A stretch of DNA of 64,000 nt. Origin: Bacteroidetes bacterium SB0662_bin_6. Lineage in GTDB: Bacteria > Bacteroidota > Rhodothermia > Rhodothermales > VXPQ01. The translations under genes and the position numbers were made by a program. The stretch spans positions 186,001 to 250,000 of the forward strand of contig VXPQ01000046.1 in NCBI GenBank assembly GCA_009839485.1, written 5' to 3'. The notes beneath the pieces are model-generated. The model did no database searches and was not told the origin of the DNA. It saw only the letters and a program-made list of their open reading frames with translations. Of the stretch, positions 25,576-53,113 are shown in pieces (positions within the stretch are counted from its first letter, which is position 1; each line of letters opens with the position of its first letter).

Positions 25576-25592
25576 TTCAATGAGGCCGGAGC
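25576..25592 (+). repeat. Half copy (5' arm) of the palindromic repeat
   Basis: TTCAATGAGGCCGGAGC is the 5' half of the repeat. At its last three bases it runs directly into the duplicated tatD 3' end. The 3' arm is absent. Confidence 0.65.
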
Positions 25593-25632: not shown

Positions 25633-25709
25633 GAATACCCCCTTTTGAGTAAAAAAAGATCATTGAGACCCGGCCAACTCTGCCAGCGCACAGTCGCCGC
25701 GCACGGCCG

Positions 25710-37270: not shown

Positions 37271-37774
37271 TCACGACCCGTCCCAAGGCCGGCGGCGGGG
37301 TATCCAGCGCGGCACATTGGCCTTGTAGCGCCGATAGTCTTCGCCGAAGCGCCGTTCGAGGCCCGGCTCTTCAAAAAATACGAAAAAGACCGTGTTGAGC
37401 AGGAAGAAGACGAGCATCCAGCCGACCAGATACCACGAACCGAATAGCAACGACTCGGCGACGAGCATGACATTTACGCTCGTGAGCATGGGGTTCCGGA
37501 CATGGCTGTAGGGACCGCGAACCACCAGCTTCTTCGGCGGCGCCCACGGCGCAGGCGTGCCCTTGCCAACCTTCACAAACAACCTGACCGTCCAGGCGGC
37601 AAAGAAGAGGCCGGTGACTCCCAGTAAAGCACCTATCCAGAACCTGGGATCTTCAGGCCCTGCCAGCGCCATAGCCCCTGGCGAGCCCGCCGAAAGCCAT
37701 AGTATTGCCCCCGGAATAAAAACAAGGGCCGTCCCGGGCAGGATGACAATAGCCTTGATGAGTTGCAGATTCAT
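37271..37774 (-). CDS. Isoprenylcysteine carboxyl methyltransferase-like membrane protein
   Basis: A 167-aa integral membrane protein with four helices. VVRGPYSHVRNPMLTSV and EEPGLERRFGEDYRRYKANV are the SAM-binding signature of the ICMT/phospholipid methyltransferase (PEMT-like) family. Bacterial members methylate lipids or small molecules; the substrate here is unknown. Confidence 0.85.
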   Translation of the reverse strand: MNLQLIKAIVILPGTALVFIPGAILWLSAGSPGAMALAGPEDPRFWIGALLGVTGLFFAAWTVRLFVKVGKGTPAPWAPPKKLVVRGPYSHVRNPMLTSVNVMLVAESLLFGSWYLVGWMLVFFLLNTVFFVFFEEPGLERRFGEDYRRYKANVPRWIPRRRPWDGS

Positions 37775-37829: not shown

Positions 37830-37907
37830 TTACGCTTTACGGCAGCAGCAGCAACAAGAGCAGCACTTCTCACAAGAGCAGCACTTGCAGCTTTGGGGAG
37901 TATTCAT
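37830..37907 (-). CDS. Very small Cys-rich (metallothionein-like) peptide
   Basis: A 25-codon frame with 11 cysteines: MNTPQSCKCCSCEKCC followed by Ser, five Cys and RKA. A strong Shine-Dalgarno sequence (GGAGG) sits 6 nt before the ATG, which supports real translation. The coding DNA contains a 15-nt direct repeat (ACAAGAGCAGCACTT twice), so the Cys clusters arose by short duplication. It may bind metal; arsM lies 1.3 kb away. Too short for any family search by eye. Confidence 0.45.
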   Translation of the reverse strand: MNTPQSCKCCSCEKCCSCCCCCRKA

Positions 37908-38003: not shown

Positions 38004-38031
38004 AATCACCGCAAAGTTCTCCCCGTTCAGG
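38004..38031 (-). pseudogene. tpiA-like 3'-end remnant, left
   Basis: Twenty-five of 28 bases match the inner part of the tpiA 3' end at 59674-59716 region and read LNGENFAVI on the minus strand, against LKGEDFAAI in TpiA. The stop codon part is not conserved. It lies 40 nt from palindromic repeat copy c and to the left of the HEPN-like pair. Confidence 0.6.
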
Positions 38032-38071
38032 GCGGGCGTCCCCGGCCCCAGCTTCACCCGCGTAGAAATGT

Positions 38072-38104
38072 TTCAATGAGGCCGGAGCTTAATGCTCCGG
38101 AAAT
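38072..38104 (+). repeat. Solitary CRISPR-like palindromic repeat, copy c
   Basis: A 33-nt copy with perfect arms CCGGAGC/GCTCCGG and the same flanks as copies a and b (TTTCAATGAGG, GAAATC). It lies between the left tpiA-like remnant and the 3' end of the HEPN-like gene, about 14 kb from the copies in the tatD island. Confidence 0.75.
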
Positions 38105-38128
38105 CAGGCTCCTCCCGGGAAACACCCC

Positions 38129-38602
38129 TCACGACCTCAACGGTAACAACACATAAATAGCAAAGGTCCGGCGATCTTGTATCGAAGCCTTCCCGAAGCG
38201 ATCGACACAGTTCTCCACCCTGTCAATGTCGCCGACGACTTCCGACCTGTGCAGCGTAACATGCGGGTCGTAATCCGCTTGATGACGCTGGGCCTGCATC
38301 TCACAGAACACCTCTGCAAAATCCTGAATATCCTGAGAAAATCGCCCAATGATCCCTTTGCGCTGGCATCGCTTCCTTGCATCACCGTGTTGCAATGCCC
38401 GATAAGCCTGATTCCACGCCCGCGTATTACGATTCGAATAGCTACGGCCAGCAAGCGCATCCGCGCAATTCTGCGCCAGACAATGAAACAATGCATAGTA
38501 GGCGGTACTCGTTGCTCGCCGCAGATTCACCTGCCTCGGCTTGCGCTTATCGATATAAGCCAATTCCCTTGATGCATCAAGCATGTTTTTTACGTACCGC
38601 AT
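38129..38602 (-). CDS. HEPN-like helical protein, copy 2
   Basis: A 157-aa paralog of the gene at 22926. NLRRATSTAYYALFHCLAQN matches DLRRAVSTTYYALFHCLARS, RHQADYDPHVTLHRSEV matches RHRADYAPDEVLQKSDV, and both end with a DRR(A/T)FA(A/I)Y motif. The start at 38602 aligns with copy 1 and overlaps the upstream partner gene by 26 nt. The R-x5-H of copy 1 is not kept, which argues against a simple HEPN RNase site at that position. Confidence 0.7.
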   Translation of the reverse strand: MRYVKNMLDASRELAYIDKRKPRQVNLRRATSTAYYALFHCLAQNCADALAGRSYSNRNTRAWNQAYRALQHGDARKRCQRKGIIGRFSQDIQDFAEVFCEMQAQRHQADYDPHVTLHRSEVVGDIDRVENCVDRFGKASIQDRRTFAIYVLLPLRS

Positions 38603-38912
38603 AACTCTCCTCCCACTCTGATTTTTCCACAAAGGTAGTAACCGGAAACGTTTCCATACCGAATTCCTCCAGCCCATTGCGAAGATTCCTGTTCAAGCCC
38701 CTCGCCGTTTTGAGATTCAGCAATTCCTGCTCCCCATCGAAAATAACTCGTATCCGAAGATATTCTTCGACTTCGTCATCGAAATAAAACTTTTCCATCT
38801 TCATGACGATATCGTCGAAGACAACATCCGTCTTCAGGCAATCACGCAGTATTTTTTCGACGGCGGATTTTATTTCCGCCTCTTTTTCCTGCAATAACGC
38901 TACGTTCGTCAT
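38577..38912 (-). CDS. Small partner protein of HEPN-like module, copy 2
   Basis: A 111-aa paralog of the gene at 22496: EYLRIRVIFDGEQELLNLKT matches EILRIKIIFDGDQNNLDTRW, and FPVTTFVEKSEWEESY matches YPITSFIEKSEWEDPA. A strong Shine-Dalgarno sequence (AAGGAGGG) precedes the ATG. Its 3' end overlaps the HEPN-like gene, so the two are translationally coupled. Function unknown. Confidence 0.72.
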   Translation of the reverse strand: MTNVALLQEKEAEIKSAVEKILRDCLKTDVVFDDIVMKMEKFYFDDEVEEYLRIRVIFDGEQELLNLKTARGLNRNLRNGLEEFGMETFPVTTFVEKSEWEESYAVRKKHA

Positions 38913-39028
38913 CCCGAATCCCTCCTTTTTTCGAGCTTCAATGCCCTCCTGTAGACCCGCGATAGCGTATTCCGTAACCCATTACCGGTTCCCGTGCGAC
39001 ATTTTCAGCGAATGCCGCTGACTCCCTC

Positions 39029-39044
39029 CCGGCAATATTGCCGG
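39029..39044. other. Perfect 16-bp palindrome
   Basis: CCGGCAATATTGCCGG is a perfect palindrome in the 330-bp gap between the HEPN-like module and arsM. It could be an operator or part of the module's edge. The rest of the gap holds the right tpiA-like remnant and no gene. Confidence 0.35.
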
Positions 39045-39087
39045 AACGTGCGCCACAGGATTCGCCCTAAACTCCTGCCCGCTTTCC

Positions 39088-39130
39088 CTACCCCACCCGC
39101 ACAATCACCCCAAAATCCTCTCCATTCAGG
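39088..39130 (-). pseudogene. tpiA-like 3'-end remnant, right
   Basis: Thirty-seven of 43 bases match the tpiA 3' end (59674-59716), including the TAG stop. The minus strand reads LNGEDFGVIVRVG-stop against LKGEDFAAIVRAG-stop. With the left remnant at 38004 it brackets the HEPN-like module and its palindromic repeat. Confidence 0.75.
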
Positions 39131-39242
39131 AAGGAAACACGAGCAACGGCTTACTGGTTCTCATCACAATCTTTCTCATTGGACGTATCCTGTTGTAACG
39201 GGTGCGCGATCCAAAGGCGCCCATCCCTCAAGGAGGTACAGA

Positions 39243-40112
39243 TTGACCCTCAATGCCACCGAAAGACGCACCGCCGTGCGCGAACGATACGCCCGCGCAG
39301 CCGTGACGGGAGACACCTGCTGCGAGCCCGCAAACGACGACCCTGGAACCGACGGTTCTGCCGCAACCGCCAGCGGCGCGAAAACTACCGCCGACGAGAT
39401 CAGTTGCGCTGTCGGCTACGGCCAGGACGAACTGAACCGCGTCCCCGAGGGCGCCAACCTCGGTCTCGGATGCGGCAACCCTGTGGCGCTGGCGTCGCTG
39501 GCTCCGGGCGAGACCGTGCTCGACCTCGGTTCGGGCGCCGGCTTCGACTGCTTCCTGGCTGCGGAACGCGTCGGGCCCGAGGGCCGGGTCATCGGGGTGG
39601 ACATGACCTCCGAGATGGTGGAACGGGCGCGCGCCAATGCGCTCAAGGGCGGTTTCGCGAACGTCGAGTTCCGGCTGGGCGAGATAGAGGCTCTGCCGGT
39701 GCCCGACGGCGTCGCGGATATCATCATTTCGAACTGCGTCCTCAACCTGTCGGCCAACCGCCCGCGCGTCCTGGCCGAGGCAATGCGCGCGCTCAGGCCC
39801 GGCGGCCGTGTAATGATCTCGGATCTGGTTTCCGATCACCCCATGCCGGACTTCATCGCGCACTCGAAGGCGTCGCTGGTCGGCTGCCTTCCGGTCCAGG
39901 TCGCCGAGTACGAAGCCGACCTCGCCGCTGCGGGATTCACGGACATCAACGTCGAAAAGCGGCAGCGCTATCCGTCCGAGCACATTCTCGCCGATCCCCA
40001 GGTGCAGGCGGTAATCCGCCGCCAACCCGCGCGCGAGGCAGAGGTCCACGCCTTCCTGGAATCGATACACGGGGGAACGATCTGCGCCACAAAGCCGGAG
40101 GCAGCAGAATAA
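39243..40112 (+). CDS. arsM: Arsenite methyltransferase
   Basis: A 289-aa SAM-dependent As(III) methyltransferase that detoxifies arsenite. The methyltransferase core has VLDLGSGAGFDCFLAAERVG. The conserved arsenic-binding cysteines are in DEISCAVGYG, SNCVLNLS and SLVGCLPVQV. A perfect AAGGAGGT lies 5 nt before a TTG at 39243, so I chose TTG as the start; the upstream in-frame ATG at 38994 would run through the tpiA-like remnant. No arsR or ars pump is adjacent. Confidence 0.9.
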   Translation: MTLNATERRTAVRERYARAAVTGDTCCEPANDDPGTDGSAATASGAKTTADEISCAVGYGQDELNRVPEGANLGLGCGNPVALASLAPGETVLDLGSGAGFDCFLAAERVGPEGRVIGVDMTSEMVERARANALKGGFANVEFRLGEIEALPVPDGVADIIISNCVLNLSANRPRVLAEAMRALRPGGRVMISDLVSDHPMPDFIAHSKASLVGCLPVQVAEYEADLAAAGFTDINVEKRQRYPSEHILADPQVQAVIRRQPAREAEVHAFLESIHGGTICATKPEAAE

Positions 40113-40283
40113 CAGGATTCGCCAGTAAGGTCACATCAACCTCGACGTAGAGCGTCTCGCCGATGCCGAGACCGCCTGGAAATCCCCGGCCTGGAAGGGG
40201 CCTCGCCAAAAACACTGTCGAGTACACGATGATCAAGAAAGCCCGAACCGATCACCCCGTTCAGGAGCCCATCGCCTCCCGCT

Positions 40284-41141
40284 ATGCCTGACCTCAACTT
40301 CATACCCCATCCATTGGTTGGAACGCCTTACGGCGCAGCGCTGGACCTGTGCATTATCCTTGCGATCATCGCCTACCTCTTGTCGGTGATCACACGCGAG
40401 TATTCCTGGGTCGACCGCCTCTGGACGACTTGCCCGCCGATCTACTGTTTGATCGTCGCCGCATCGCTGGATTTCGAATCCGCCCGGGTAAACCTGATGA
40501 CGTTGCTCGTTTTATTGTGGGGAGCACGGCTCACCTTCAACTATGCGCGCAAAGGGGGATTCGCCAAAGGCGGGGAAGATTACCGTTGGCTGGAGATCCG
40601 CAAGCGCATCGGCCCCTTTCGGTTTCAGTTGCTGAACCTGGTGTTCATCGCTCCCGGGCAGATGCTCATCGTCTGGCTGTTCACGGCGCCCATACATATT
40701 GCCTGGATGCATCAGGACGCGCCGCTGAATTGGATCGATATCGTGACGGCGCTGGTGTTTTTCACCCTCTGGATCGGAGAAATCGTGGGCGATGAACAGA
40801 TGTGGCGCTTTCAGCAGGAAAAGAAGCACAAGATCGCGGCCGGCGAACCGGTCGGGCAGGGCTTCATAACGTCGGGCCTGTTCGCCTGGTCCCGGCATCC
40901 GAGCTATTTCTGCGAACTCGGCATGTGGTGGAGTTTCTACTGGTTCACGATCGCGGCCTCGGGGCAACTCGTCAATTGGACCATGCCGGGGTTCATTCTG
41001 CTGACCATGGTTTTCTTCGGCTCGTCACGGCTTGCCGAGTCCATCTCGCTTTCCAAATACCCGTCCTATACGGATTATCAGGCGAGCACTCCGCGCATCA
41101 TCCCGTTCACCGGGATAGGCAAGATCAGGCGGTCAGGGTGA
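40284..41141 (+). CDS. DUF1295 (steroid 5-alpha-reductase-like) membrane protein
   Basis: A 285-aa membrane protein with about six helices. YSWVDRLWTTCPPIYCLI, DEQMWRFQQEKKHKIA and GLFAWSRHPSYFCELGMWWS are typical of DUF1295, which shares a fold with steroid 5-alpha reductases and ICMT. The substrate is unknown. It stands 171 nt after arsM. Confidence 0.87.
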   Translation: MPDLNFIPHPLVGTPYGAALDLCIILAIIAYLLSVITREYSWVDRLWTTCPPIYCLIVAASLDFESARVNLMTLLVLLWGARLTFNYARKGGFAKGGEDYRWLEIRKRIGPFRFQLLNLVFIAPGQMLIVWLFTAPIHIAWMHQDAPLNWIDIVTALVFFTLWIGEIVGDEQMWRFQQEKKHKIAAGEPVGQGFITSGLFAWSRHPSYFCELGMWWSFYWFTIAASGQLVNWTMPGFILLTMVFFGSSRLAESISLSKYPSYTDYQASTPRIIPFTGIGKIRRSG

Positions 41142-41231
41142 AGGCCCGGTCTGTTTGCCGGACATGCTATAGAGGACAGCCCGTTCAATAGATTTTGCGG
41201 GCACATTCCATGCTTTAACTCCCCCATGCTA

Positions 41232-41260
41232 TTGACATCATGCCAGCTTCTTCGTAAATG
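41232..41260 (+). promoter_or_regulatory. Candidate sigma-70-type promoter before the sulfatase region
   Basis: TTGACA at 41232-41237 is followed after 17 nt by TAAATG at 41255-41260. The -10 is weak, but the -35 and spacing repeat the layout before the isomerase and TonB genes, and a LacI-like palindrome overlaps the -10. Confidence 0.4.
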
Positions 41261-41272
41261 TTATCGATAACA
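41259..41272. promoter_or_regulatory. LacI-type operator, site A
   Basis: TGTTATCGATAACA is a perfect 14-bp palindrome with a central CG, the usual form of LacI-family operators. It overlaps the -10 of a candidate promoter upstream of the sulfatase fragment, ankyrin, sulfatase and maturase genes. Sites B (47602) and C (59481) share the consensus TGTTANCGNTAACA with one mismatch each. Confidence 0.6.
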
Positions 41273-41295
41273 CCCGCTCTCTGCGAATCGCCACG

Positions 41296-41406
41296 ATGGA
41301 GCGGAGAACATTCTTGCGGCTAACAGGCGCCGACACAACCGCCTTCGTGCTGTCGCAAGGCCTGTCGTGCACTGCAAGAGCAGCTGGTGTCCCAATATCG
41401 TTCTGA
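41296..41406 (+). pseudogene. Orphan Tat signal peptide, remnant of a sulfatase-like gene
   Basis: A 36-codon frame, MERRTFLRLTGADTTAFVLS followed by QGLSCTARAAGVPISF-stop, is a twin-arginine signal peptide (RRTFLR) with no mature protein behind it. The form resembles the signal of Tat-exported sulfatases. It lies 24 nt after operator site A. Most likely the body of a sulfatase gene was deleted, leaving the promoter, operator and signal. Confidence 0.55.
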
Positions 41407-41415
41407 TCAACACCT

Positions 41416-42099
41416 ATGGAAAAGATGCACAGGATCAGGGAAATACGATACGTGGCCGTGATGCTGGTAACCTGCATGCTTGTGGCGGCCCTGACTATCC
41501 AGAATCGCCCTGATGACCTGCTTCATCGCGCCGCGGAGGCGGGAGACCTCGAGACGGTCTCCACGCTCATCGAACAGGGCGCCGACGTGAATGCTCGTAT
41601 AGGCGATTGGACCCCCTTGCATCGCGCGGCGGTGGCGGGGCACGTAGCGATCGCCCGGCGGCTCCTTGCGGCAGGCGCCGAAGTAGATGCCCGGGGCACG
41701 GCCGGATGGACGCCGCTGCACCGGGCAGTGAAGATGGGGCAGGTGGAGATGGCGAGGCTGCTCCTGGCAAGCGGGGCGGATGTACACGCGAAGGGCATCC
41801 ACGGTTGGACGCCACTGCTTCGGGCAGCAATGGCCGGACGGGCTGAAACAGGGCATCTCCTGATTCAAGCCGGAGCCGGGGTCAACCAGAGAAGCATCCA
41901 CAACGGCTGGACCGTGCTGCACTGGACGGCCTTTAGCGGTAGCCTGGAACTGGTCCGATATCTGATCGATGCCGGTGCAGAGGTTCATGCCAGGGCCGGG
42001 ACAGGGCCCACGCCGCAGGGAAATACACCCATGTGGTTGGCAACGCACTACGGCCACGATGAAATCAGAGCACTGCTTCTTGAACAGGCAGGACCGTAA
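41416..42099 (+). CDS. Ankyrin repeat protein, membrane-anchored or exported
   Basis: A 227-aa protein. One N-terminal hydrophobic helix (VAVMLVTCMLVAALTI) is followed by about six ankyrin repeats of the form DLLHRAAEAGDLETVSTLIE, WTPLHRAAVAGHVAIARRLL and WTPLHRAVKMGQVEMARLLL. Such repeats mediate protein-protein contacts. It ends 17 nt before the sulfatase start, so the genes are probably co-transcribed. Confidence 0.87.
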   Translation: MEKMHRIREIRYVAVMLVTCMLVAALTIQNRPDDLLHRAAEAGDLETVSTLIEQGADVNARIGDWTPLHRAAVAGHVAIARRLLAAGAEVDARGTAGWTPLHRAVKMGQVEMARLLLASGADVHAKGIHGWTPLLRAAMAGRAETGHLLIQAGAGVNQRSIHNGWTVLHWTAFSGSLELVRYLIDAGAEVHARAGTGPTPQGNTPMWLATHYGHDEIRALLLEQAGP

Positions 42100-42116
42100 A
42101 ACGAGAGGGGGTATCG

Positions 42117-43673
42117 ATGAACGAACCACGTGATATATCGGGAGGCGCCTTCCGAAAGAACAAACCGGGGGAGCAAAGCCGGCGGGAATTCCTGAAACTG
42201 GCGGCAACCGCCGGTGTGGCCGCTACCGTGCCGGGTCTTTCTGCCTGCCTGGACGATACACCGGACGGACGACCACCCAACGTCATTGTTATCTTCGCCG
42301 ACGACCTGGGCTATGGCGACCTGGCCTGTTACGGCTCGGAAACCATCCGCACGCCCAATCTGGACGGCCTTGCTGCTGAGGGCATGCGCTTCACGGATTT
42401 TCGCGTGACGTGCTCCGTGTGCAGCCCCTCCAGAGCTTCCCTGTTGACCGGGCGCTATCCGTCTCGCTGCGGGATGCCCTATGCTGTGGGCGGGGTCTAT
42501 TCGGACCTGGGCCTGCAAGAAAGCGAAATCACGGTAGCCGGGTTACTTAAGGACGAAGGGTATGCGACGGCCTGTATCGGCAAATGGCACCTCGGCGTAC
42601 CCCAGGGCTTCAATTACCAGACCCACGAGGGATTTACGTCTTCTTCGGAGTTCCACCCGAACCGGCATGGCTTCGACCTCTTCTACGGCATGGTGGGTAA
42701 CTCGAACCCGGATGGATCCACCCCGCTCCTTGAGAACGATGGCATCGTGGATCCGGATGCTCATATCACGACGATTACGGAGCATTTCACCCGACGCGCG
42801 ACCGACTTCATCCGTGCGCACCAGGATCGGCCGTTCTTCATCTATCTCCCCCACACCCGGTCGCACGCCCCGTGGATGGCGAATCCGAGGTTTGCGGGGC
42901 AATCCCGGGACGGTGTCTACGGAGATATGGTGGAGGAGATCGACTGGAGTACGGGCGAGGTGCTGAAAACACTGGACGAGCTCGGCCTCACGGAAAACAC
43001 CCTCGTGATCTTTGCCTCGGATAATGGAGCCAGTCCGTCGCCTACGCATGGATCGAACGCACCGCTGCGCGGCGGGAAAGGCTCTACCTTCGAGGGGGGC
43101 ATGCGCGTACCCTGCATCATGCGCTGGCCCGGTGGGGTCCTTGCCGGGCGAACGAACGCCGCAATGATAAATGTGATGGACCTGTTACCGACGATAGCCG
43201 GCCTGGCAGGGGCCCGCCTGCCGGAAGACCGGGTAATCGACGGAATGGACCTCCGGCCGGTGCTTTCCGGCGCCGAAGAGACCATAGCTCCTGACCGGAT
43301 GTTTTATTACTACAACGGGCTGAACCTGCAAGCCGTGCGTGAGGGCCGGTGGAAGTTGCATCTGCCGCGTCGGTCCGAGATGCTTGTGTGGTGGGATTCA
43401 GGATTGGACGAACTCGAAGCGCCCATGCTTTTCGATCTGGAAACGGATCCCGGCGAAACGAACGACCTGGCTGCGCAGCGCCCGGAGGTTGTTGAGCGGC
43501 TACTGGCGAAGGCCGAACAAATTCGAGCCGAATTGGGATCGTGGGAGCAAGAGGGCAGGGATCAGAAACCCATTGAACACTTGATGGACGACCGCCGCCG
43601 TCTGCGGCACCTGCGAACGCAACAGAGACATCAGGATATGGGAAGGGATGTACCGTCTACCCGATATCGCTAA
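42117..43673 (+). CDS. Sulfatase (formylglycine-dependent), Tat lipoprotein
   Basis: A 518-aa type I sulfatase. A Tat/lipoprotein signal (SRREFLKLAATAGVAATVPG then LSAC) precedes NVIVIFADDLGYGDLACYGS with metal-binding Asp residues. CSVCSPSRASLLTGRYPSR carries the C-x-P-S-R core whose Cys becomes formylglycine, and GKWHLGVP and YLPHTRSHAPW follow. It should remove sulfate from a glycan in the periplasm. The maturase directly downstream would install the formylglycine. Confidence 0.93.
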   Translation: MNEPRDISGGAFRKNKPGEQSRREFLKLAATAGVAATVPGLSACLDDTPDGRPPNVIVIFADDLGYGDLACYGSETIRTPNLDGLAAEGMRFTDFRVTCSVCSPSRASLLTGRYPSRCGMPYAVGGVYSDLGLQESEITVAGLLKDEGYATACIGKWHLGVPQGFNYQTHEGFTSSSEFHPNRHGFDLFYGMVGNSNPDGSTPLLENDGIVDPDAHITTITEHFTRRATDFIRAHQDRPFFIYLPHTRSHAPWMANPRFAGQSRDGVYGDMVEEIDWSTGEVLKTLDELGLTENTLVIFASDNGASPSPTHGSNAPLRGGKGSTFEGGMRVPCIMRWPGGVLAGRTNAAMINVMDLLPTIAGLAGARLPEDRVIDGMDLRPVLSGAEETIAPDRMFYYYNGLNLQAVREGRWKLHLPRRSEMLVWWDSGLDELEAPMLFDLETDPGETNDLAAQRPEVVERLLAKAEQIRAELGSWEQEGRDQKPIEHLMDDRRRLRHLRTQQRHQDMGRDVPSTRYR

Positions 43674-43732
43674 CCCGCATTTTGTCCGGAAGGCCCTCGG
43701 ACATGTGGATAATGGTTGGAAAAGACATCCTC

Positions 43733-45124
43733 ATGAAAAAGGAACATGATCTGAATCCCGTTATGGAGCCTGTAGCGAACGATTCGAAGACGGCCTTCCA
43801 TGTGATGACGAAACCCATCGGGCCGCTTTGCAATCTGGACTGCACATATTGTTTCTATCTGGAGAAGGAAAACCTCTATCCTCAAGCGCAGAAGAAAGCA
43901 GTCTGGTCGATGCAGGACGACGTCCTGGAAACCTATATTCGGCAATACATTGCATCGCAGGACACGCCGGTCGTCAGCTTTGCCTGGCAGGGAGGTGAGC
44001 CCACGCTGCTGGGGGTGGAATATTTCCGAAAGGTCGTAGCTCTCCAGGAAGAATACGCAGACGGCAGGAAAGTCGAGAATGCTTTCCAGACCAACGGGGT
44101 AATTCTTGATGATACGTGGTGCGCTTTCTTTGCGGAGCACAACTTTCTGATCGGGCTTTCCATCGACGGCCCGCGCGCGCTACACGACAGATACCGGGTG
44201 GACAAGGGGGGGCAGCCTACTTTCGATCGGGTGATACAGGGGCTTTCCTATCTGAAGAAATACGACGTGGCCTTTAACACGCTGACGGTCGTCCAGCGTC
44301 ATAACGGAGACTATCCACTTGAGGTCTACCGGTTTTTGAAGGAGATCGGCAGCGGGTTTATGCAATTCATCCCGATTGTAGAGCGTGTGGCAACCGAGCC
44401 GGGGTTGGATCACTTGTCGCTTGTTTCCCCTGATTTTACCTATGAGGCCGTTGTTTCCGAGTGGTCGGTCGAGCCGGAGCAGTATGGCCGGTTCCTGTGC
44501 ACCATCTTCGATGAATGGGTGCGCAATGATGTCGGTCAATACTTCGTCCAACTCTTTGATGTGGCGCTTGAATCCTGGATCGGGAGGCAACCAGGCCTTT
44601 GTGTGTTTCGCGAAACGTGCGGCGATGCGCTCGCGCTCGAGCACAATGGGGATCTCTATTCCTGTGATCACTTCGTCTACCCTGCCAACAAGCTGGGCAA
44701 CATCATGGATAAGCCGCTGCTATCCATGACGAATTCTCTCCAGCAGCAATCATTCGGAGCCGCCAAACAAGACACGCTGCCGGATTACTGCCGTCGGTGT
44801 GACGTGCGTTTCGCCTGCAACGGTGAATGCCCCAAAAAGCGTTTTATGAAGACACCTGACGGCGAAGCAGGATTAAACTACCTGTGTGCCGGTTACAAGA
44901 TGTTCTTCAGGCACATCGACCCCTACATGAGATTCATGGCCGGTCAGCTTTACCGGAGAAGGGCGCCTGCTGACGTCATGGCGTGGTCGCGTTGGCGGGA
45001 TTTTCACGCCAGTGGCAGGCGCATAGGCCGGAATACGCCCTGTCCCTGCGGCAGCGGCAGGAAATACAAGGCGTGTTGCGGCACTTTGAGGAATGGTGGT
45101 GATCAGTTTGCCGGATCTGCATGA
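43733..45124 (+). CDS. Anaerobic sulfatase maturase (radical SAM, SPASM and SEC-C)
   Basis: A 463-aa radical SAM enzyme that converts the sulfatase active-site Cys or Ser to formylglycine. GPLCNLDCTYCFYLEKE gives the CX3CX2C cluster, and SFAWQGGEPTLLG and FQTNGVILDD are family motifs. The Cys-rich SPASM region follows (LPDYCRRCDVRFACNGECPK), and the C-terminus is a SEC-C zinc motif (NTPCPCGSGRKYKACCG). The start is uncertain: ATGs exist at 43703, 43712 and 43733. Its 3' end overlaps the convergent aldolase gene by 22 nt. Confidence 0.92.
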   Translation: MKKEHDLNPVMEPVANDSKTAFHVMTKPIGPLCNLDCTYCFYLEKENLYPQAQKKAVWSMQDDVLETYIRQYIASQDTPVVSFAWQGGEPTLLGVEYFRKVVALQEEYADGRKVENAFQTNGVILDDTWCAFFAEHNFLIGLSIDGPRALHDRYRVDKGGQPTFDRVIQGLSYLKKYDVAFNTLTVVQRHNGDYPLEVYRFLKEIGSGFMQFIPIVERVATEPGLDHLSLVSPDFTYEAVVSEWSVEPEQYGRFLCTIFDEWVRNDVGQYFVQLFDVALESWIGRQPGLCVFRETCGDALALEHNGDLYSCDHFVYPANKLGNIMDKPLLSMTNSLQQQSFGAAKQDTLPDYCRRCDVRFACNGECPKKRFMKTPDGEAGLNYLCAGYKMFFRHIDPYMRFMAGQLYRRRAPADVMAWSRWRDFHASGRRIGRNTPCPCGSGRKYKACCGTLRNGGDQFAGSA

Positions 45125-45891
45125 TCTGATCGGGGCAGATGACGCGCAAGCATGCGCTGCCGATAGTGTTCATCGGTGCGTCCGGCAATGCGATACACCT
45201 CGGATTCATCCATGAAAACCGGCCCTCCGAGGGTCGCGGCGCCGACGAAGATGCGGGCTGCCTTCTCTGCCATGGCCAGCGCCGCGATGACCTCCGTGTG
45301 CTGCGCTCCCAGGGCGATGACACCATGGTTCTCAAGCAAAATGGTCTTGGGCAGTACTCCCGTTATTTTTCTAAACGTCTCTACTTCCCTGGCCATGTAC
45401 CGGGCCAGCGTAAAGCCAGGATCCACGTAGGGTATCAGAACGGATTCCACCCCGCAGTAGACGACTTGGTCGGGAATCACGCGCCGGACGGCAAAGTCCC
45501 GCTTTCGCGGGGAACAGAGCACCTGGTTGACGGCGATAGCATGGGTGTGCCCGATGATCCGGATGCCCGGCAGAGTCAGCAACCAGGCGTGAAACAGGCT
45601 CTCGACCGAGGGCTTGAGCGCGTCCGGATCCGTGCGCACTTCCAATAGCAACCTCTCTATTTCCTCGTCCGTAAGGTCTTTCCCTCCTTCCAGAGCCGCC
45701 AGCAACGGCCGGGCATCAACCCCTACCAGTTCTTCGGGTTTCAGCGTGGACATCCGGGTGCCGCTGGCTTTAATAAGGAAGTGGTGGTCATCCAGCTTGC
45801 CCGAGACATTCCCCTCCCCGGCGATAGCCATATGCCGCCCGTCCCCGAGATCGTGCGCGAGGTCAAGTAACAGGCGACGGATATCTTCCAT
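45103..45891 (-). CDS. Class II aldolase/adducin family protein
   Basis: A 262-aa zinc-dependent aldolase-like protein. AIAGEGNVSGKLDDHHFLIK and KASGTRMSTLKPEEL bind phosphate, GHTHAIAVNQVLCSP supplies the HxH zinc ligands, and LLENHGVIALG supplies the third His. Family members cleave fuculose- or rhamnulose-phosphate, or decarboxylate. It is downstream of the fucose-isomerase-like gene on the same strand, with a 53-nt gap, which supports a role in deoxysugar breakdown. Confidence 0.87.
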   Translation of the reverse strand: MEDIRRLLLDLAHDLGDGRHMAIAGEGNVSGKLDDHHFLIKASGTRMSTLKPEELVGVDARPLLAALEGGKDLTDEEIERLLLEVRTDPDALKPSVESLFHAWLLTLPGIRIIGHTHAIAVNQVLCSPRKRDFAVRRVIPDQVVYCGVESVLIPYVDPGFTLARYMAREVETFRKITGVLPKTILLENHGVIALGAQHTEVIAALAMAEKAARIFVGAATLGGPVFMDESEVYRIAGRTDEHYRQRMLARHLPRSDHADPAN

Positions 45892-45944
45892 GGGGGGCAT
45901 AGGCTTGATGTTCCTTGTTCCCGAAGGGGCCCGCAAACATTCCT

Positions 45945-47552
45945 TCAAGAGGCGATCCTCTCATGCAAGCCGCATACGAAGGTTTCGATGCCCATGTTCT
46001 GGAACGCCGCTACTTTCGAGATCAGCGCCTTCCGTGCCGCGTCGTCATCGGGCGCATAGGCTACCTGGATGTGATTCGACTTGTGGCGGGCCATCATCTG
46101 GTCACGCGAAACACCATGCAGCACGGCGTGCATGATCGGCCACTGCGATGTGGTAAGCCGCCACCGGCGCTCCGTCTCTTCCCGTGGTAATTCCACGACC
46201 GTGCCCCGCCCCACGTCTGCCTTGAGGCGGCCGTCCTCGGCAAAAACACGGCTCCAGATTATCTCGCCCGGCTTGCTGATTCCTTTCAGCGTTCCCCCTC
46301 CCAACCGGAAATACATGGGTGGCTGGCGTTCACTACTCGTCCCCGAATAGCCTCCTGTGAAATGTGCGGGCGGCGCAGCCCCGGAAATCTCGAAGACCCA
46401 CACGAAATCTCCGTCATAGGGCTCGCCCCAGCGAAGGTCATGCAGGGTGGTCTCCGGTGAATACCCGAGCGCGCGCCAGAGGCGATGGGTCACCAGGGCA
46501 TCCAGCCCGGCACACTCATCGACCTCGTTGAAGTGTGGAAGCGCCGTTCCGGGATAGAGCTCGCGGGCGCCGTCGCGCGAATATACCGGCGGGCGTTCCG
46601 TGTTGTTCAGAAGGCCTTCCGCCAGATCGGAGGCGGGCAGCAGATCCTTGAGCCCCTGCTGGTATTGGATTCCGACGAGATCGCAACCGAAATCATCGGC
46701 GATGCGGAGCACGGCAATGTACATCTTGCACTGCTGCAACACCTGTGCTTCCGTGAGATGTTCGTCTTCGTCCGGCCCCAACTGAAAACGCACGCCACGA
46801 TCTTTGAGCCACTCGAAACAGGCCTGCGCCTCTTCCTCGGAAACCCGAGTGGCTTCGTAGTACAGAGCGCTCTGGCTGAGACGTTCTTTGAAAATCCCGA
46901 CCGGGTGCAACAGTTCGTCGGGGATGATTGCATTATACATCCCCATGCATCCCTCGTCAAAAACCCCCATGATAGCCTTGTCCCGTCGAAGCTCCCCGGC
47001 CAGGCGGCGGCCAAGCTCAGACTCCGCATCCGTAAAATCCAGTTCGGATGCGGGAAGCACGTGGCTCAGATCGTGCGCTACGCTACCTGTTTCGAGCCAG
47101 ACGCGAAGCCCCTGCCTGAACTTCTCGTCGGTGAAATCATCGCTCCAGAGCGTGCTGTATGGTACGCCGGCCTTGGTCAGGCAACCGTTCATGTTAAGCA
47201 TGCCGACAAGACCGGGCCAGGTTCCGCTCCAGTTGGCTACGGTCAGAATCGGCCCGCGATGGGTCGACAAACCGGGCAGGACGTGATGTGAGTACTGCCA
47301 CGCCGCAAAGGCGATCACGAGAGGATTGTCAGGATCTATTTGCCGAAAGACTGTCCGGCCGTGCTTCTGGCTGTCGATGAAGCCATGTTTCTTTTCGGGG
47401 AGTTCCTCGTGGGCGCGCACTACCTGATGCCCTTCCGCTTCGATGACTCGTATGATGGCCCGTTCGACCTTCTGCTGCTCAGGCCAGCATCTTTGATTGG
47501 CTGCAAGGCGCAGATCTCCGTTGGCGATAAGCGTAACAGCGTTCGTGCTCAC
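45945..47552 (-). CDS. L-fucose/L-arabinose isomerase family protein
   Basis: A 535-aa protein of the fucose/arabinose isomerase superfamily: VANWSGTWPGLVGMLNMNGC, FDEGCMGMYNAIIPDELL, the active-site Glu-Asp segment NEVDECAGLDALVTHRLWRA, and HAVLHGVSRDQMMARHKSNH. It probably isomerises an aldose to a ketose. It is followed by the class II aldolase and diverges from lacI. Operator site B and a TTGACA promoter lie just upstream. Confidence 0.85.
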   Translation of the reverse strand: MSTNAVTLIANGDLRLAANQRCWPEQQKVERAIIRVIEAEGHQVVRAHEELPEKKHGFIDSQKHGRTVFRQIDPDNPLVIAFAAWQYSHHVLPGLSTHRGPILTVANWSGTWPGLVGMLNMNGCLTKAGVPYSTLWSDDFTDEKFRQGLRVWLETGSVAHDLSHVLPASELDFTDAESELGRRLAGELRRDKAIMGVFDEGCMGMYNAIIPDELLHPVGIFKERLSQSALYYEATRVSEEEAQACFEWLKDRGVRFQLGPDEDEHLTEAQVLQQCKMYIAVLRIADDFGCDLVGIQYQQGLKDLLPASDLAEGLLNNTERPPVYSRDGARELYPGTALPHFNEVDECAGLDALVTHRLWRALGYSPETTLHDLRWGEPYDGDFVWVFEISGAAPPAHFTGGYSGTSSERQPPMYFRLGGGTLKGISKPGEIIWSRVFAEDGRLKADVGRGTVVELPREETERRWRLTTSQWPIMHAVLHGVSRDQMMARHKSNHIQVAYAPDDDAARKALISKVAAFQNMGIETFVCGLHERIAS

Positions 47553-47601
47553 AAGCTTCTGCTTCTTCTTTCTGCGGCGTGCCGGGAAATCCGACGAGAA
47601 A

Positions 47602-47615
47602 TTTTAGCGTTAACA
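47602..47615. promoter_or_regulatory. LacI-type operator, site B
   Basis: TTTTAGCGTTAACA on the plus strand reads TGTTAACGCTAAAA toward the isomerase gene. It matches the palindromic consensus TGTTANCGNTAACA with one mismatch and is 12/14 identical to site C. It lies about 50 nt upstream of the isomerase start and just downstream of the candidate -10. Confidence 0.6.
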
Positions 47616-47623
47616 TCTAAAGA

Positions 47624-47652
47624 AAAGTAGCGATTCAGGCCCACCATGTCAA
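47624..47652 (-). promoter_or_regulatory. Candidate promoter of the isomerase-aldolase operon
   Basis: On the minus strand TTGACA (47652-47647), a 17-nt spacer and TACTTT (47629-47624) form a sigma-70-like promoter. Site B begins 8 nt downstream, about where transcription would start. The remainder of the 370-bp divergent region up to lacI shows no gene. Confidence 0.5.
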
Positions 47653-47922
47653 GCAGATCGACGATGGATAACGTAGCGCTCTGACGGCCATGAACAGAGC
47701 TTTTCAGAGCCATTCTCCGCCGAGGAACCGGCGCCCGGGCAAAGCGGAGAAATACAAGGCGATTTGGCGAGCGGCAACGCATCGCGGCATATCCGGTGCG
47801 AGGCAAAGCGGATCGAAACGGATACTTCGGGAACCTGCACCACAGGCAATCATGGAAGAAATACCGATGCGGGTTGCTGATCCACACTCCTTATTCTTTC
47901 CTTTGATCGACTGCAAAGTTTA

Positions 47923-48918
47923 ATGAGCACTATCCTGGATGTCGCCAATCAGGCGGGTGTCAGTGCGATGACCGTCTCGCGCTACTTTAACCAACCCGAC
48001 ATGCTTGCGCCTGCCACGCACAGAAAAGTGCGCGCCGCTATCGAAGAGCTCCAGTATGTCCCCAATGCAGCCGCCCGCAGCCTTGTCAACGGCTGCACGA
48101 ACGCCATTGCCCTGATTCTGTCCGACATTACCAACTCGTTTTATACCACGGTAGCCCGAGGAGTAGAAGACAAGGCGCAACAACACGGATACGCTCTCAT
48201 TCTCGGCAATTCCGATGAATCGCTGGAGAAAGAACGCCTTTATCTGGACGTGCTCATTTCGCGCCGCGTGGATGGCGTGTTAATTTCTTCCGCCCCGGGA
48301 AACAACCGCCACCTCGATATGCTGCGCCACCACGACATCCCGGTGGTGTTGATCGACCGTACCGTGGAGGAAATCGACGCCGACGCGGTATGGGGCGATA
48401 CATTCACCGGGGCCATCCATCTGACCGGTCATCTCGTCGAGCAGGGGTTCCGGGACATTGCCCTCGTGGGTGGTTGGCCCGGGGTTTCTTCCCTGGAAGA
48501 ACGCCAGGCCGGATACCTTCGCGCCATGAAGGAAGCCGGTCTCGTTCCTCACGTATATCCGGGACGTACGAGCCGCCAAAGCGGCGAGGAGATCACGGAA
48601 CAACTGTTCAGGAAGAACTTGCTTCCTCGGGCCATTATCGCTGCAAACAACCATGTGGCGGTGGGGGTACTGGTTAGTCTGAGACGCCATGGGGTACGTG
48701 TGCCGGAGGACGTAGCGGTGGCCTGTTTCGACGATATCGAAATCGCTGCCCAGATAAATCCTTTTCTGACCGTCGTCGCCCAGCCGGCTTACGAAATGGG
48801 GGCTCTTGCCATGGACATGCTCCTCGAACGGATGCAGGGCTTCGACGGCGCTCCGCGCCATCGTGCGTTGCCTACGAAGATGATCGTACGGTCCTCTTCC
48901 CTCGTCCCGGCGCCTTGA
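47923..48918 (+). CDS. LacI family transcriptional regulator
   Basis: A 331-aa regulator. The N-terminal helix-turn-helix TILDVANQAGVSAMTVSRYF and hinge helix YVPNAAARSLVNGCTNAIAL are followed by a periplasmic-binding-protein-like sugar sensor (LILSDITNSFYTTVARGVED, RRVDGVLISSAPGNN, DVAVACFDDIEIAAQINPFL). It diverges from the isomerase operon, the common place for a local repressor. Three matching LacI-type palindromes at 41259, 47602 and 59481 are its likely targets. Confidence 0.93.
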   Translation: MSTILDVANQAGVSAMTVSRYFNQPDMLAPATHRKVRAAIEELQYVPNAAARSLVNGCTNAIALILSDITNSFYTTVARGVEDKAQQHGYALILGNSDESLEKERLYLDVLISRRVDGVLISSAPGNNRHLDMLRHHDIPVVLIDRTVEEIDADAVWGDTFTGAIHLTGHLVEQGFRDIALVGGWPGVSSLEERQAGYLRAMKEAGLVPHVYPGRTSRQSGEEITEQLFRKNLLPRAIIAANNHVAVGVLVSLRRHGVRVPEDVAVACFDDIEIAAQINPFLTVVAQPAYEMGALAMDMLLERMQGFDGAPRHRALPTKMIVRSSSLVPAP

Positions 48919-48993
48919 CGGGCAGGCACAGATAAAGCCCCGGCGAGGCTGCACTGCAGAAAATCATGAAAGAAGGTTTCTGCGGTACCGGCC

Positions 48994-50235
48994 TTACGGT
49001 GCAAACGCGCTGCGTATTTCGTTCAGTGTTTTCCCGAGGGTTCCCACAGCGATCCGATCGAGCGCTTCTTCGCTCCCCTGCAAATGGATCGTACGGTGCA
49101 CGTGCGTCAGGGAGTCCCCGGGCGCCAGCGCCATAGCCGGGGAAGAGCTTTCGAGTTCATAGAATGGGCCGAGTGGTTCAGCGCCCGGCTCGGGCGGCCC
49201 ATCGTTGTAACTGTTTATGATATCGCCCGCGTAGGGGTCCTCCTGGATTTCCCACATCGAGTTTACATAGTCCGCCGCCGTCTCCGACATCGTATATTGC
49301 ACCAGCGTGAGCACGCGGTTGTCCGCATCGTAGCTCCCGAACACGGGCTTGCTACGCTTGCTGGTCAGGCCGATCTTGCTGCGATATTTTCCGTCGCCGC
49401 TGAAGTAGATCACATCGTCCTCGATGATCAGCCGGTCCGGAGGCGGTTCGCCAAAATAGGCTGCGTTGACGATGGGGCCCAGTACCTCCTCATCACCGGA
49501 CTGATAAGGAATCACGACTGTGGTCGCCGGGGAAGGGGTGAACATGCCGAGAATCCAGATCGACAAGAGGCCTCCTTCTTTGGTCCAGGCCTCATCACCC
49601 ACGTTCGTGATACTGTTGACGGATTCGAAGGCGACAACCTGGACGACGGAATCCAGCGCCACGCCCAACCCCTCGGCGACCTCAGCCCTGCCTGACAGCC
49701 GGACCTCACGGTCCACTTCGAGATCGAACGTCGTACCGGAAAAGTTTGTCAGGCGCATTGCTTTTTCGAAGACAATCCTGTCGCGCTCCTGCGCCGCCAC
49801 GGGAAACGGATCCCAGTCTATGGCGGCAGGCACGTACCAGTGTTCCATTTCGAACGGGTCGCCTCCCTGGAAATAGATGGAGAACTGTCCGCCTTCGGGC
49901 CCCAACCAGAAGCGATCTTCGCCCCCGAACACATTGATGTGTTCCTGCCGCTCGCCTGAGGCGATAAGCTCCCGATTGATCCAGCCGTAGCTCATTCCAT
50001 CGCTACCGGCAGCAGTACTCGTCAGGACGCGTCCTTGCATGGGCGGGCTGACTACGACCTGGGCCTGCCCTGCTTCATCAGATAACACAACCACTTCGGT
50101 ATGCTCGTTGAGAAAAGCAAGATCTTCCCCAAAGGTTGCGGTCTCCGTCACGGTGTTTTCCATCTCATCATCCGACCGGTTGCAGGATGTCGACAGTACT
50201 GCAAGTAATATGCTTCCCATGATGACCTTCTTCAT
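48994..50235 (-). CDS. DUF6786-like lipoprotein
   Basis: A 413-aa lipoprotein (MKKVIMGSILLAVLSTSC, lipobox STSC). VVVLSDEAGQAQVVVSPPMQ and GRVLTSTAAGSDGMSYGWIN begin a beta-rich domain that looks like the DUF6786 family and the galactose-mutarotase-like superfold, and FGGEDRFWLGPEGGQFSIYF fits carbohydrate-binding epimerase-like sheets. Assignment is from memory of the family style. AAGGAGG precedes the start. It is the last gene of the minus-strand carbohydrate cluster. Confidence 0.65.
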   Translation of the reverse strand: MKKVIMGSILLAVLSTSCNRSDDEMENTVTETATFGEDLAFLNEHTEVVVLSDEAGQAQVVVSPPMQGRVLTSTAAGSDGMSYGWINRELIASGERQEHINVFGGEDRFWLGPEGGQFSIYFQGGDPFEMEHWYVPAAIDWDPFPVAAQERDRIVFEKAMRLTNFSGTTFDLEVDREVRLSGRAEVAEGLGVALDSVVQVVAFESVNSITNVGDEAWTKEGGLLSIWILGMFTPSPATTVVIPYQSGDEEVLGPIVNAAYFGEPPPDRLIIEDDVIYFSGDGKYRSKIGLTSKRSKPVFGSYDADNRVLTLVQYTMSETAADYVNSMWEIQEDPYAGDIINSYNDGPPEPGAEPLGPFYELESSSPAMALAPGDSLTHVHRTIHLQGSEEALDRIAVGTLGKTLNEIRSAFAP

Positions 50236-50431
50236 AGGTAATCCTCCTTTTCGTCAAAAAAACCGACATGCCTTCCGTATTTACGCACAAAAGTCCCTGG
50301 AGTCAGCCGTCTTTTCACCATGCATTTCGGACGGCGCCACTCGGATGATACGATGAAAAACACCAAACAGATAATACTCCCCCTACCCCGCACACCCGCC
50401 AGGGGACGTATGCATCTTATCACCGCGCCTG

Positions 50432-53113
50432 TCATGGACGAATTTCCAGCGGATAGCGGGCCAGTTCCGCCGCCGACCTTTCAAGGGGCGCTTCGTTACC
50501 CAAAACCAGCGTATAAGAGCCGTCATCCGGTAACCCCTCGACCTTCAGGAGCACCTCATACGGCTCGTCGTAGGGTACCGGCAACGCGGTAAGCAGCTTT
50601 TCGACGTTCACCCGGAGCGTCCGTCCGTCGAGAGAATAACTTTGGGCAGCAATTCCATCAACCCCCACGACCATATCCCGCTCCACATTGACATAGAGGC
50701 CGCCGAGTTGACGCAGTACGTCGGCGGCAGCGGCCAATCCGCCCACCTCGGCCCAACTCGGCCCGGAGCGGAGCGGGGTTTGTGGAAACCCTTCATGATC
50801 GATGTTTTCCGGCCCCAGCCCCAGGGGAAACGTCGGAGCATTGTATATCCCGTTCTCGACGTGCTGAGGAAGGGTAATCAGCGCAAGCGAGGAACGGGCG
50901 GCTGCCACCCCTCGCTCGACCAGGTCCTGCCGCCCGGTAAGCAGCCCGAGTCGGACCAGTATCCCGGCGAACCGGTGGTCACGCTGATCCAGCCATTCGG
51001 CATCGCCGATCTGTGAAGAGAAGCCTCCGAAGGGATAGGCCGTAATGATATAATGCGGCGCCCATACCGTTTGCAGAAAACTGGCATAGTCCGCGACGGC
51101 CTCGGCCGCTTCAAGGTAACGCGATTCCCCGGTTGCTTCGTAGAGCGAAACAAAACCCTGCAAGGCCCACGACATCGACATGGCGTTGCGCGGCGGCTGG
51201 CCTGTCCGCGGATCGAAGAAGGTCTCGGCCTTGACGGCACAGGAGTATAGCGCCTCGAAATCCACCCATCTTTGTTGAGGCATTACGTCATCTATCAGAA
51301 ACTGTGCGGCGCGTTTGGCTGCTTGCAGGAATTTATCTTCGCCGGTAGCGCGATACAGCTCACTGAGTACCCACGCATGCGCTCCGCCATCGGCGTTCCA
51401 GCGCATGCTCGGACGAGGTTCAAGATGCTCGGTGAACCAGGCGGGCACACTGCCTTCGGGCTGCATACGTGCTATGAGAAAGTCGCCATACCGCTGGACG
51501 TAATCCAGAATACGCGGGTCTTTCTGATAGAGACGATAGACCTCCATCAGATAACCCGCTGTCACACTGGCCGATGCCGTCTGATAGTCCCCCTCTTCCC
51601 AGTTCCAGTAGGTCCGTGTTTCGTCCGGATCGTACCCCTCGGTCGGAAATCGCCAGAGGCTGCCTATCCAATGCTTCTCGTTCAGATCGTAAAGGGAAGG
51701 AAACAAACCCTCATGCTGCGGCGCCATGAGGGCCAGGTTGACCATGCGGCGGGCCTTGTCGATGAGTGAAGGATCCCCAAGCCGCTCGCCCCAATAATAG
51801 AATCCGGTGGCGTCCGCTACGTTATTCCACCAGGCCGTATTGTATGTCAGATGAAACCACTGCGGCGCCGTGAGCCGCAGCGCCCCGACCGGCTGCCCCT
51901 CCATTTCCCACTGCTGCCAGGAATTCCAGGCATCCGGTCCTTCAGGGTCCCGGTGGACCATGACGGGCTTCCCGTCTTCATACTCGACAGTAAAACCTTT
52001 ATAGGCCAAAGATGCCGGATACGCAATCGAGGCATACTCGGCGAATGGCATCGCCTGGGGGCGGGGACGCTGGAAATAGTGCCTCCCGTAACGGTCCCAG
52101 AGATACGTAGCCGCCCCCTGGTATCCCCGGTAAGGCGAGGCTTCGGCGTCCAGGATGAGATCCATCCCGTAACGCACCTCGTTGTCGGAAAGCGTACGAA
52201 CGAGGGTTCCACCCGCGTTTTCATGGCGCCAGTAAACGTGCTGCTCCGTGATCGCGTCCATGACGCCATACGCCAGCAGCGGGTGATTCGTCATCCCGGA
52301 GGCAAGTTCCAGATCCAGCACGGCCGGCATGGATATCCTGGACGAGTCGATAGGAACGCCGAAAATCCAGGGATGCTTTTGAGGTCGCGCGTGCTGCCCG
52401 TATACAATGTGCTCGTTGATCTGGTCAAGATCGGGTACCAAGGCTGCAAACACGCTCCCGGTCTGCACGATGGCCGCGGGCGCAAAGAAGGCGCGATCGC
52501 CGATGACATCGCCGGGAGATCGCTTGTAGGCCGGCGCATGGCTGAAATCCGGGGATCCCGCCTCGGCAAAGGAAAATGGGGAAAACAGATATTCCAATTG
52601 CGGCGGATCGCCCCGGAGCACCCCCTGCACGTCGACGTGAATGATGTTTCTTCCCCGTTGCAGGCTCACGGTCTGCTCGACGCGCACCATAGGGGTCTCC
52701 CCGGTAAGCACCACCTGTACTTCCTCGGGAGTTTTTTGGCTCACGTGCACCGTACGGAGTACTTCGGGAACGATCACGCGGTACTCCTCCGCAATGCGCA
52801 GGGCCCGACCCTGCTCGTTGGAGCGATCCAGGTACAGTGCAGTGGTAGTGTGCGGGCGCGGGTTGGGAGGACGAAACGCCTCAGCCACAAGCACCCATTG
52901 CCCGGCCTGCGCGGCAAAGAAGGCCTGATCAACGCCTTCGGGGCTCGGCGTGAATCGGGCTTTGACGAGGCCGTTGTCGATCTCGATGTACCCGTCGATC
53001 TCACGTACCTCGACCGGGTTGGTCTGAGACGCCGCCCGTTGAGCAGATCCGCCAAATACCGTGGCGGCAAGAAGAAGGACGGCAACGGCGCTTCGCCATC
53101 GAGGCCCCGCCAT
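50432..53113 (-). CDS. Large secreted helical-barrel protein, putative glycan-active enzyme
   Basis: A protein of about 893 aa. The start at 53113 gives a signal peptide (SAVAVLLLAATVFGGSAQRA). Residues about 50-330 are beta-sandwich-like (GYIEIDNGLVKARFTPSPEG). Residues about 400-820 form helical repeats with aromatic pairs typical of (alpha/alpha)6 barrels (FHLTYNTAWWNNVADATGFY, WNWEEGDYQTASASVTAGYL, GAHAWVLSELYRATGEDKFL, YPFGGFSSQIGD). I do not recognise a defined GH or PL family. Position downstream of PorV and the TonB receptor suggests a glycoside hydrolase or lyase. Confidence 0.65.
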   Translation of the reverse strand: MAGPRWRSAVAVLLLAATVFGGSAQRAASQTNPVEVREIDGYIEIDNGLVKARFTPSPEGVDQAFFAAQAGQWVLVAEAFRPPNPRPHTTTALYLDRSNEQGRALRIAEEYRVIVPEVLRTVHVSQKTPEEVQVVLTGETPMVRVEQTVSLQRGRNIIHVDVQGVLRGDPPQLEYLFSPFSFAEAGSPDFSHAPAYKRSPGDVIGDRAFFAPAAIVQTGSVFAALVPDLDQINEHIVYGQHARPQKHPWIFGVPIDSSRISMPAVLDLELASGMTNHPLLAYGVMDAITEQHVYWRHENAGGTLVRTLSDNEVRYGMDLILDAEASPYRGYQGAATYLWDRYGRHYFQRPRPQAMPFAEYASIAYPASLAYKGFTVEYEDGKPVMVHRDPEGPDAWNSWQQWEMEGQPVGALRLTAPQWFHLTYNTAWWNNVADATGFYYWGERLGDPSLIDKARRMVNLALMAPQHEGLFPSLYDLNEKHWIGSLWRFPTEGYDPDETRTYWNWEEGDYQTASASVTAGYLMEVYRLYQKDPRILDYVQRYGDFLIARMQPEGSVPAWFTEHLEPRPSMRWNADGGAHAWVLSELYRATGEDKFLQAAKRAAQFLIDDVMPQQRWVDFEALYSCAVKAETFFDPRTGQPPRNAMSMSWALQGFVSLYEATGESRYLEAAEAVADYASFLQTVWAPHYIITAYPFGGFSSQIGDAEWLDQRDHRFAGILVRLGLLTGRQDLVERGVAAARSSLALITLPQHVENGIYNAPTFPLGLGPENIDHEGFPQTPLRSGPSWAEVGGLAAAADVLRQLGGLYVNVERDMVVGVDGIAAQSYSLDGRTLRVNVEKLLTALPVPYDEPYEVLLKVEGLPDDGSYTLVLGNEAPLERSAAELARYPLEIRP

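What the first reader, a model, noticed from the sequence alone, without database searches (positions are those of the whole stretch)
38004..39130. tpiA-like 3' ends on both sides of the second HEPN-like module
39088-39130 matches the tpiA 3' end at 37 of 43 bases, including the stop codon, and 38004-38031 matches it at 25 of 28. The intact tpiA is 21 kb away. The fragments share LNGE where the local TpiA has LKGE, so they may come from another genome's tpiA and have been carried in with the module.
Basis: partly seen in the sequence, partly recalled or inferred. Interest (0 to 1): 0.55.

Follow-up and report, generated by a model that had tools for sequence, protein, structure and literature searches.

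The report
Leftover tpiA ends marking insertion scars
Two short copies of the end of a housekeeping gene beside a toxin-like gene pair are most likely scars of DNA insertions next to that gene, beside a decayed CRISPR locus, and not imports from another species.

Summary
In detail: 39088-39130 matches the tpiA 3' end at 37 of 43 bases and 38004-38031 at 25 of 28, both in tpiA's orientation, and both exceed chance. In two congeners (G001, G002) the same gene pair lies directly behind intact tpiA, on the same strand, and its leader is homologous to ours. Fragment 39074-39130 therefore looks like tpiA's own tail at an old tpiA-module junction, left behind when a 20.5-kb block came between. The second fragment occurs at the same place in congener G003, which has no module there, so it did not travel with the module. 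Of 29 tpiA ends tested, both fragments match this genome's and its sister's (G004) best; LNG is also found in congeneric TpiA. In G001/G002 the module leads into a type I-G CRISPR-Cas locus; here only an orphan CRISPR repeat remains beside the second fragment. The first HEPN module shows the same pattern with tails of a TatD-like gene. I read the fragments as insertion scars at an old HEPN/CRISPR island. How the 3' end came to be duplicated is unresolved: no recombinase was found among the genes scanned, and a congener's array end shows no tpiA copy.

The parts
59674..60417 (-). intact tpiA, the only copy in the genome
   Evidence: PF00121 search of own genome, E 1.2e-94, 1 match; translation
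59660..59716 (-). tpiA 3' end plus 14 nt: reference copy of the duplicated stretch
39074..39130 (-). tpiA 3'-end remnant ('stubR') on the promoter side of HEPN module 2; includes the stop codon at 39088-39090
   Evidence: 57 nt, 80.7%, E 7e-9; score 70 against shuffle maximum 36
38004..38031 (-). tpiA 3'-end remnant ('stubL') on the far side of the module; HMM extent 37977-38031
   Evidence: 25 of 28; HMM hit; ortholog in G003 C1:1891909-1891994
38577..38912 (-). small partner protein, 111 aa, predicted alpha/beta, no family match: presumed antitoxin
38129..38677 (-). HEPN-fold protein, 182 aa
   Evidence: profile match to solved HEPN proteins; predicted model pLDDT 84.3, best VIA match 2hsb, Z 11.5
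38070..38104 (.). orphan CRISPR repeat of the type I-G kind used in G003
   Evidence: 91% over 33 to the G003 array repeat
38032..38069 (.). 38 nt between the orphan repeat and stubL, one spacer length
37830..37907 (-). 25-aa Cys-rich ORF, flank shared with G003 and G005
37271..37774 (-). PEMT methyltransferase, flank shared with G003 (partial), G004 and G005
39131..59659 (.). 20,529-bp block lying between tpiA and stubR: methyltransferase 39179-40112, DUF1295 gene 40284-41141, sulfatase/TonB/LacI carbohydrate cluster 41416-59413
   Evidence: synteny with G003 and G004; Pfam; length
18701..19678 (+). intact TatD-like gene (name recalled from its sequence, no family search)
22340..22366 (+). 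remnant of the TatD-like 3' end before HEPN module 1; fuller ortholog in G003
   Evidence: 22 of 27; G003 ortholog 59 nt, 79.7%, E 3e-9
22496..23396 (+). HEPN module 1: partner 22496-22834 and HEPN 22926-23396
25590..25633 (+). remnant of the TatD-like 3' end, directly after half a CRISPR repeat and followed by the flank seen behind that gene in G005
   Evidence: 44 nt, 95.5%, E 1e-13; flank
20997..21032 (.). orphan CRISPR repeat
24229..24264 (.). orphan CRISPR repeat
25574..25592 (.). half CRISPR repeat

Best explanation
Both pieces are this lineage's own tpiA 3' end, left as scars at the edges of a worn-down HEPN/type I-G CRISPR island that sat directly behind tpiA. In an ancestor the order was tpiA, HEPN partner, HEPN, (cas genes,) CRISPR array, as still seen in G001 and G002. 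In this lineage a block (now 20.5 kb) came to lie between tpiA and the module; tpiA kept a complete 3' end and the last 43 bases plus 14 more stayed beside the module as stubR. stubL is an older copy of the same end at the far edge of the island, followed by the Cys-rich/PEMT flank. The cas genes were lost, leaving the HEPN pair and one CRISPR repeat. Shown: the sequence matches, the synteny in congeners, the orthologous stubL, the absence of cas1. Inferred: the order of events, and that insertion at the 3' end made the duplications (attachment-site-like integration, or recombination anchored in tpiA).
For: Only the tpiA 3' side varies: gatB-tpiA upstream order is conserved in 5 of the 5 genomes of the genus with a tpiA match (the sixth, G005, has none), while downstream lies HEPN (G001, G002), DUF1295 (G003) or the carbohydrate cluster (G000, G004). 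Module leader homologous to the tpiA-module spacer of G001: 64 against a maximum of 43 in 2000 shuffles. Orthologous stubL in G003 with a degenerate CRISPR repeat on the same side and no module. G001/G002 continue from the module into type I-G cas genes and an array; this genome has no cas1 match and no cas relic in the window. All stubs start at the same tpiA position and nothing tpiA-like precedes them. Parallel case at module 1: TatD-like 3' ends at 22340 and 25590; G005 has that gene followed directly by module 1. In G002 a 2.4-kb block lies between two 55-nt copies of a gene junction that is uninterrupted in 4 of the 4 relatives with enough sequence. No tpiA-end copy at E < 0.01 within about 20 kb downstream of tpiA in 20 of 20 relatives of other families.
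Against: G002's array-distal end carries no tpiA end; another gene follows. No stub between modules A and B in G001/G002. G004 has the block but no stub. No recombinase among the genes of the block that were scanned, so the insertion mechanism is inferred. stubL is short (25 of 28). G003's own tpiA, whose tail is altered, did not find its stubL at E 0.05. At module 1 the stub's edge coincides with an IS3-like remnant, so that case may have another cause. HEPN identity to G001 (69-70%) fits vertical descent but does not prove it.
Confidence: 0.7

Rival explanations
1. One reading: the module was transferred from another species with pieces of that species' tpiA.
For: The module is absent at this place in the closer relatives G003 and G004, and its best relative is in G001 (69%), next to tpiA.
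Against: stubR fits this genome's and G004's tpiA (70, 65) better than G002's and G001's (44, 37). stubL exists in G003 without the module. Module 1 is bordered by tails of its own local gene, not of tpiA.
Confidence: 0.12
2. Site-specific integration: integrative elements repeatedly used the 3' ends of tpiA and the TatD-like gene as attachment sites, restoring the gene and displacing the old end.
For: Stubs start at one fixed tpiA position and run past the stop; duplications of 44-59 nt at three unrelated sites.
Against: No integrase seen among the scanned genes; the tpiA and TatD-like ends are not convincingly alike (p from below 0.001 to 0.74 over 12 comparisons); one stub edge is half a CRISPR repeat and another an IS3-like end.
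Confidence: 0.25
3. The pieces are chance or a small repeat element unrelated to tpiA.
For: stubR and the G003 stubL share a 10-mer upstream that is not tpiA (p 0.012).
Against: Scores beyond all shuffles, best non-tpiA HMM hits in 316 kb, same locus and orientation, no further copies in the genome.
Confidence: 0.03

Closest known systems
Genomic islands integrated at the 3' end of a housekeeping gene (e.g. SGI1 at trmE; PMC8409611, abstract read in the search listing)
   Same: Cargo lies behind the 3' end of a conserved gene, with partial copies of that end at block edges.
   Different: No integrase found among the genes scanned; copies are old (about 81-89% identical), and similar scars occur at two different genes.
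Type I-G CRISPR-Cas loci
   Same: G001, G002, G003 and G005 carry type I-G cas genes beside HEPN modules; the orphan repeats here match the G003 array.
   Different: This genome has no cas1 match: only orphan repeats remain.
HEPN-MNT toxin-antitoxin dyads (PMC3710099, passages read)
   Same: Small partner gene in 5' position, HEPN gene behind it; HEPN fold predicted.
   Different: The partner has no nucleotidyltransferase match; its predicted fold is another alpha/beta arrangement.
Homology-facilitated illegitimate recombination (PMC3240628, abstract read in the search listing)
   Same: One end of an insertion anchored by homology could leave a partial copy of the anchor gene.
   Different: Not shown here; proposed as a possible route only.

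Membership tests
tpiA 3' end (homology of the fragments) | significant match to tpiA ends without using the fragments in the model | tested here: met
   tpiA-only HMM: E 0.0037 and 0.011, next unrelated hit 0.67
Integrative element at a gene 3' end | direct repeat of the gene end at block edges | tested here: met
   39074-39130 and 59660-59716 border the block
Integrative element at a gene 3' end | integrase or other recombinase in the element | tested here: not met
   none among the block's genes scanned by Pfam/NCBIfam
Integrative element at a gene 3' end | uninterrupted site in a relative | tested here: inconclusive
   G001/G002 have tpiA directly before the module; G003 has a smaller block
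HEPN toxin | HEPN fold | tested here: met
   (2hsb Z 11.5, rmsd 3.8, 121 aligned; helical bundle, so fold only)
HEPN-MNT toxin-antitoxin | MNT nucleotidyltransferase partner | tested here: inconclusive
   no Pfam match for the partner; Foldseek list headed by OsmC-like proteins at weak E
HEPN toxin-antitoxin | toxicity and neutralisation | not testable with these tools
   needs expression
Type I-G CRISPR-Cas system in this genome | cas genes | tested here: not met
   no cas1 match in the genome, no cas relic in the window

The most novel reading that the evidence does not exclude
In this genus DNA blocks enter directly at gene ends by one shared route that leaves direct copies of about 45-59 nt of the neighbouring gene, and this route has repeatedly built and dismantled islands made of HEPN pairs and type I-G CRISPR-Cas loci at tpiA and at a TatD-like gene.
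Probability: 0.2. Interest if true: 0.55.

Novelty: new member of a known kind. Interest (0 to 1): 0.35.

Why it matters
The scars turn an odd match into a readable history: they show which block came late, that the HEPN pair was originally tpiA's neighbour, and that a type I-G CRISPR locus has decayed to its HEPN pair and orphan repeats. If the equal-sized duplications at several sites share one cause, they would point to an insertion route that could be followed in strains of this genus.

Tried and rejected
A third tpiA-like piece before the DUF1295 gene (around 40249-40272) was seen by eye but is not found by the HMM and was dropped. A duplicated 59-nt stretch in G004 turned out to be the end of an IS3-like element and was dropped as a scar. 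Tandem duplication of tail plus module: no stub lies between modules A and B in G001/G002. A shared target sequence in tpiA and the TatD-like gene: 12 comparisons gave p from below 0.001 to 0.74, not convincing. An off-target Cas1-Cas2 spacer event was considered: the 38-nt gap fits a spacer, but the tpiA copies are 1.1 kb apart and 57 nt long, so not supported. HEPN pair on phages: no match by tblastn of the HEPN protein; module on plasmids: no match. PADLOC: no match for 4 of 4 module proteins. Six of the HEPN-neighbourhood stretches outside the genus (L127, L147-L151) hold no type I-G cas gene. Promoter scan: nothing above shuffles. In the 29-end comparison G019 appears through L127 only; other relatives with tpiA were not all fetched. 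In one search the printed peptide is stale for 5 of 20 rows; their anchors were checked.

Full report
The observation. 39088-39130 equals the tpiA 3' end at 37 of 43 bases and 38004-38031 at 25 of 28; the first extends to 57 nt (39074-39130), past the stop codon. tpiA is present once in the genome, on the minus strand at 59674-60417. Scores exceed every shuffle. An HMM made only from five congeneric tpiA ends puts the two pieces and a G003 piece right behind the real genes in 315,869 bases. All three begin at the same tpiA position, and upstream of it nothing resembles tpiA.

Surroundings. Between the pieces lie, on the minus strand, a 111-aa protein and a 182-aa protein. The larger has a HEPN fold by profile and by predicted structure; the smaller has no family match. 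Beside the second piece is a single CRISPR repeat of the kind found in a 21-repeat array of G003, 38 nt from the piece.

Relatives. Six genomes of the genus were available (G000 and five others). In G001 (a Rhodothermales MAG) and G002 the same pair follows intact tpiA directly and leads into type I-G cas genes and an array. The pair's leader in our genome aligns with the tpiA-module spacer of G001, score 64 against a shuffle maximum of 43. The gene order upstream of tpiA is the same in 5 of the 5 genomes with a tpiA match; what follows tpiA differs. In our genome and G004 the carbohydrate cluster follows, in G003 the DUF1295 gene. In G003 a counterpart of the second piece stands before the same Cys-rich/PEMT flank, with a degenerate CRISPR repeat but no HEPN module beside it.

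Reading. The first piece stands to the module as the tpiA 3' end stands to it in G001/G002: same side, same strand, 176 bases from its stop to the partner's start. The simplest history is that the module stayed and a block came in between, leaving a copy of tpiA's end. The second piece is older, since G003 shares it. Our genome has no cas1 match and no cas relic in the window, so the CRISPR part has decayed.

Donor. Of 29 tpiA ends, the pieces match this genome and G004 best. Asn in LNGE is also in TpiA of G001/G002. A foreign donor is not needed.

A parallel. The first HEPN module (22496-23396) is bordered by remnants of the 3' end of a TatD-like gene (18701-19678): one at 22340-22366, whose fuller ortholog in G003 spans 59 nt, and one at 25590-25633, 95.5% identical over 44 nt, directly after half a CRISPR repeat. 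In G005 the TatD-like gene is followed directly by module 1. An IS3-like remnant touches the remnant at 22340, so its origin may differ. An unprompted scan of 16 HEPN-bearing stretches for direct repeats at gene ends found the tpiA and TatD-like cases, some gene-internal or unrelated repeats, and a 55-nt case in G002, where a 2.4-kb block lies between the copies and the junction is uninterrupted in G000, G001, G003 and G004.

Against. G002's far array end has no tpiA copy; G004 has the block without a stub; no recombinase was found among the genes scanned. The mechanism of duplication is therefore inferred.

Literature. Searches for tpiA with attB, genomic island and integrase, for HEPN with type I-G CRISPR and for HEPN beside CRISPR loci with toxin-antitoxin listed no paper on a tpiA 3'-end island or a HEPN pair bordering type I-G loci, as far as titles and abstract starts show; the one tpiA mention opened concerns phage WO flanks (PMC9203015). 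Rhodothermales with CRISPR and genomic island gave no paper.

Noticed in passing
L047:5194-6239 and L048:4724-5767 (G003): Two HEPN modules, direct copies of 1,046 bp at 97.3%, border the type I-G CRISPR-Cas locus; G005 C660 also has a HEPN module on each side of type I-G interference genes.
   Followed up: partly
window 20997-21032, 24229-24264, 25574-25592, 38070-38104: Orphan CRISPR repeats in a genome without a cas1 match.
   Followed up: partly
L152:6558-6612 and 9038-9092 (G002): A 2.4-kb insert bordered by 55-nt copies (93%) of a gene junction that is uninterrupted in four relatives.
   Followed up: partly
window 22154-22344: IS3-like element remnant (84% to a G004 copy; family name recalled) touching the TatD-like remnant.
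   Followed up: no
L045/L046 against L153 (G001/G002 against G003): Type I-G adaptation proteins are about 86-89% identical while Cas3 proteins are about 25% identical, as if the interference part had been exchanged.
   Followed up: no
window 39029-39044: Perfect 16-nt palindrome between stubR and the module's first gene, possibly an operator.
   Followed up: no
window 26931-29328: Two neighbouring paralogous ORFs with a 300-nt stretch at 89%.
   Followed up: no
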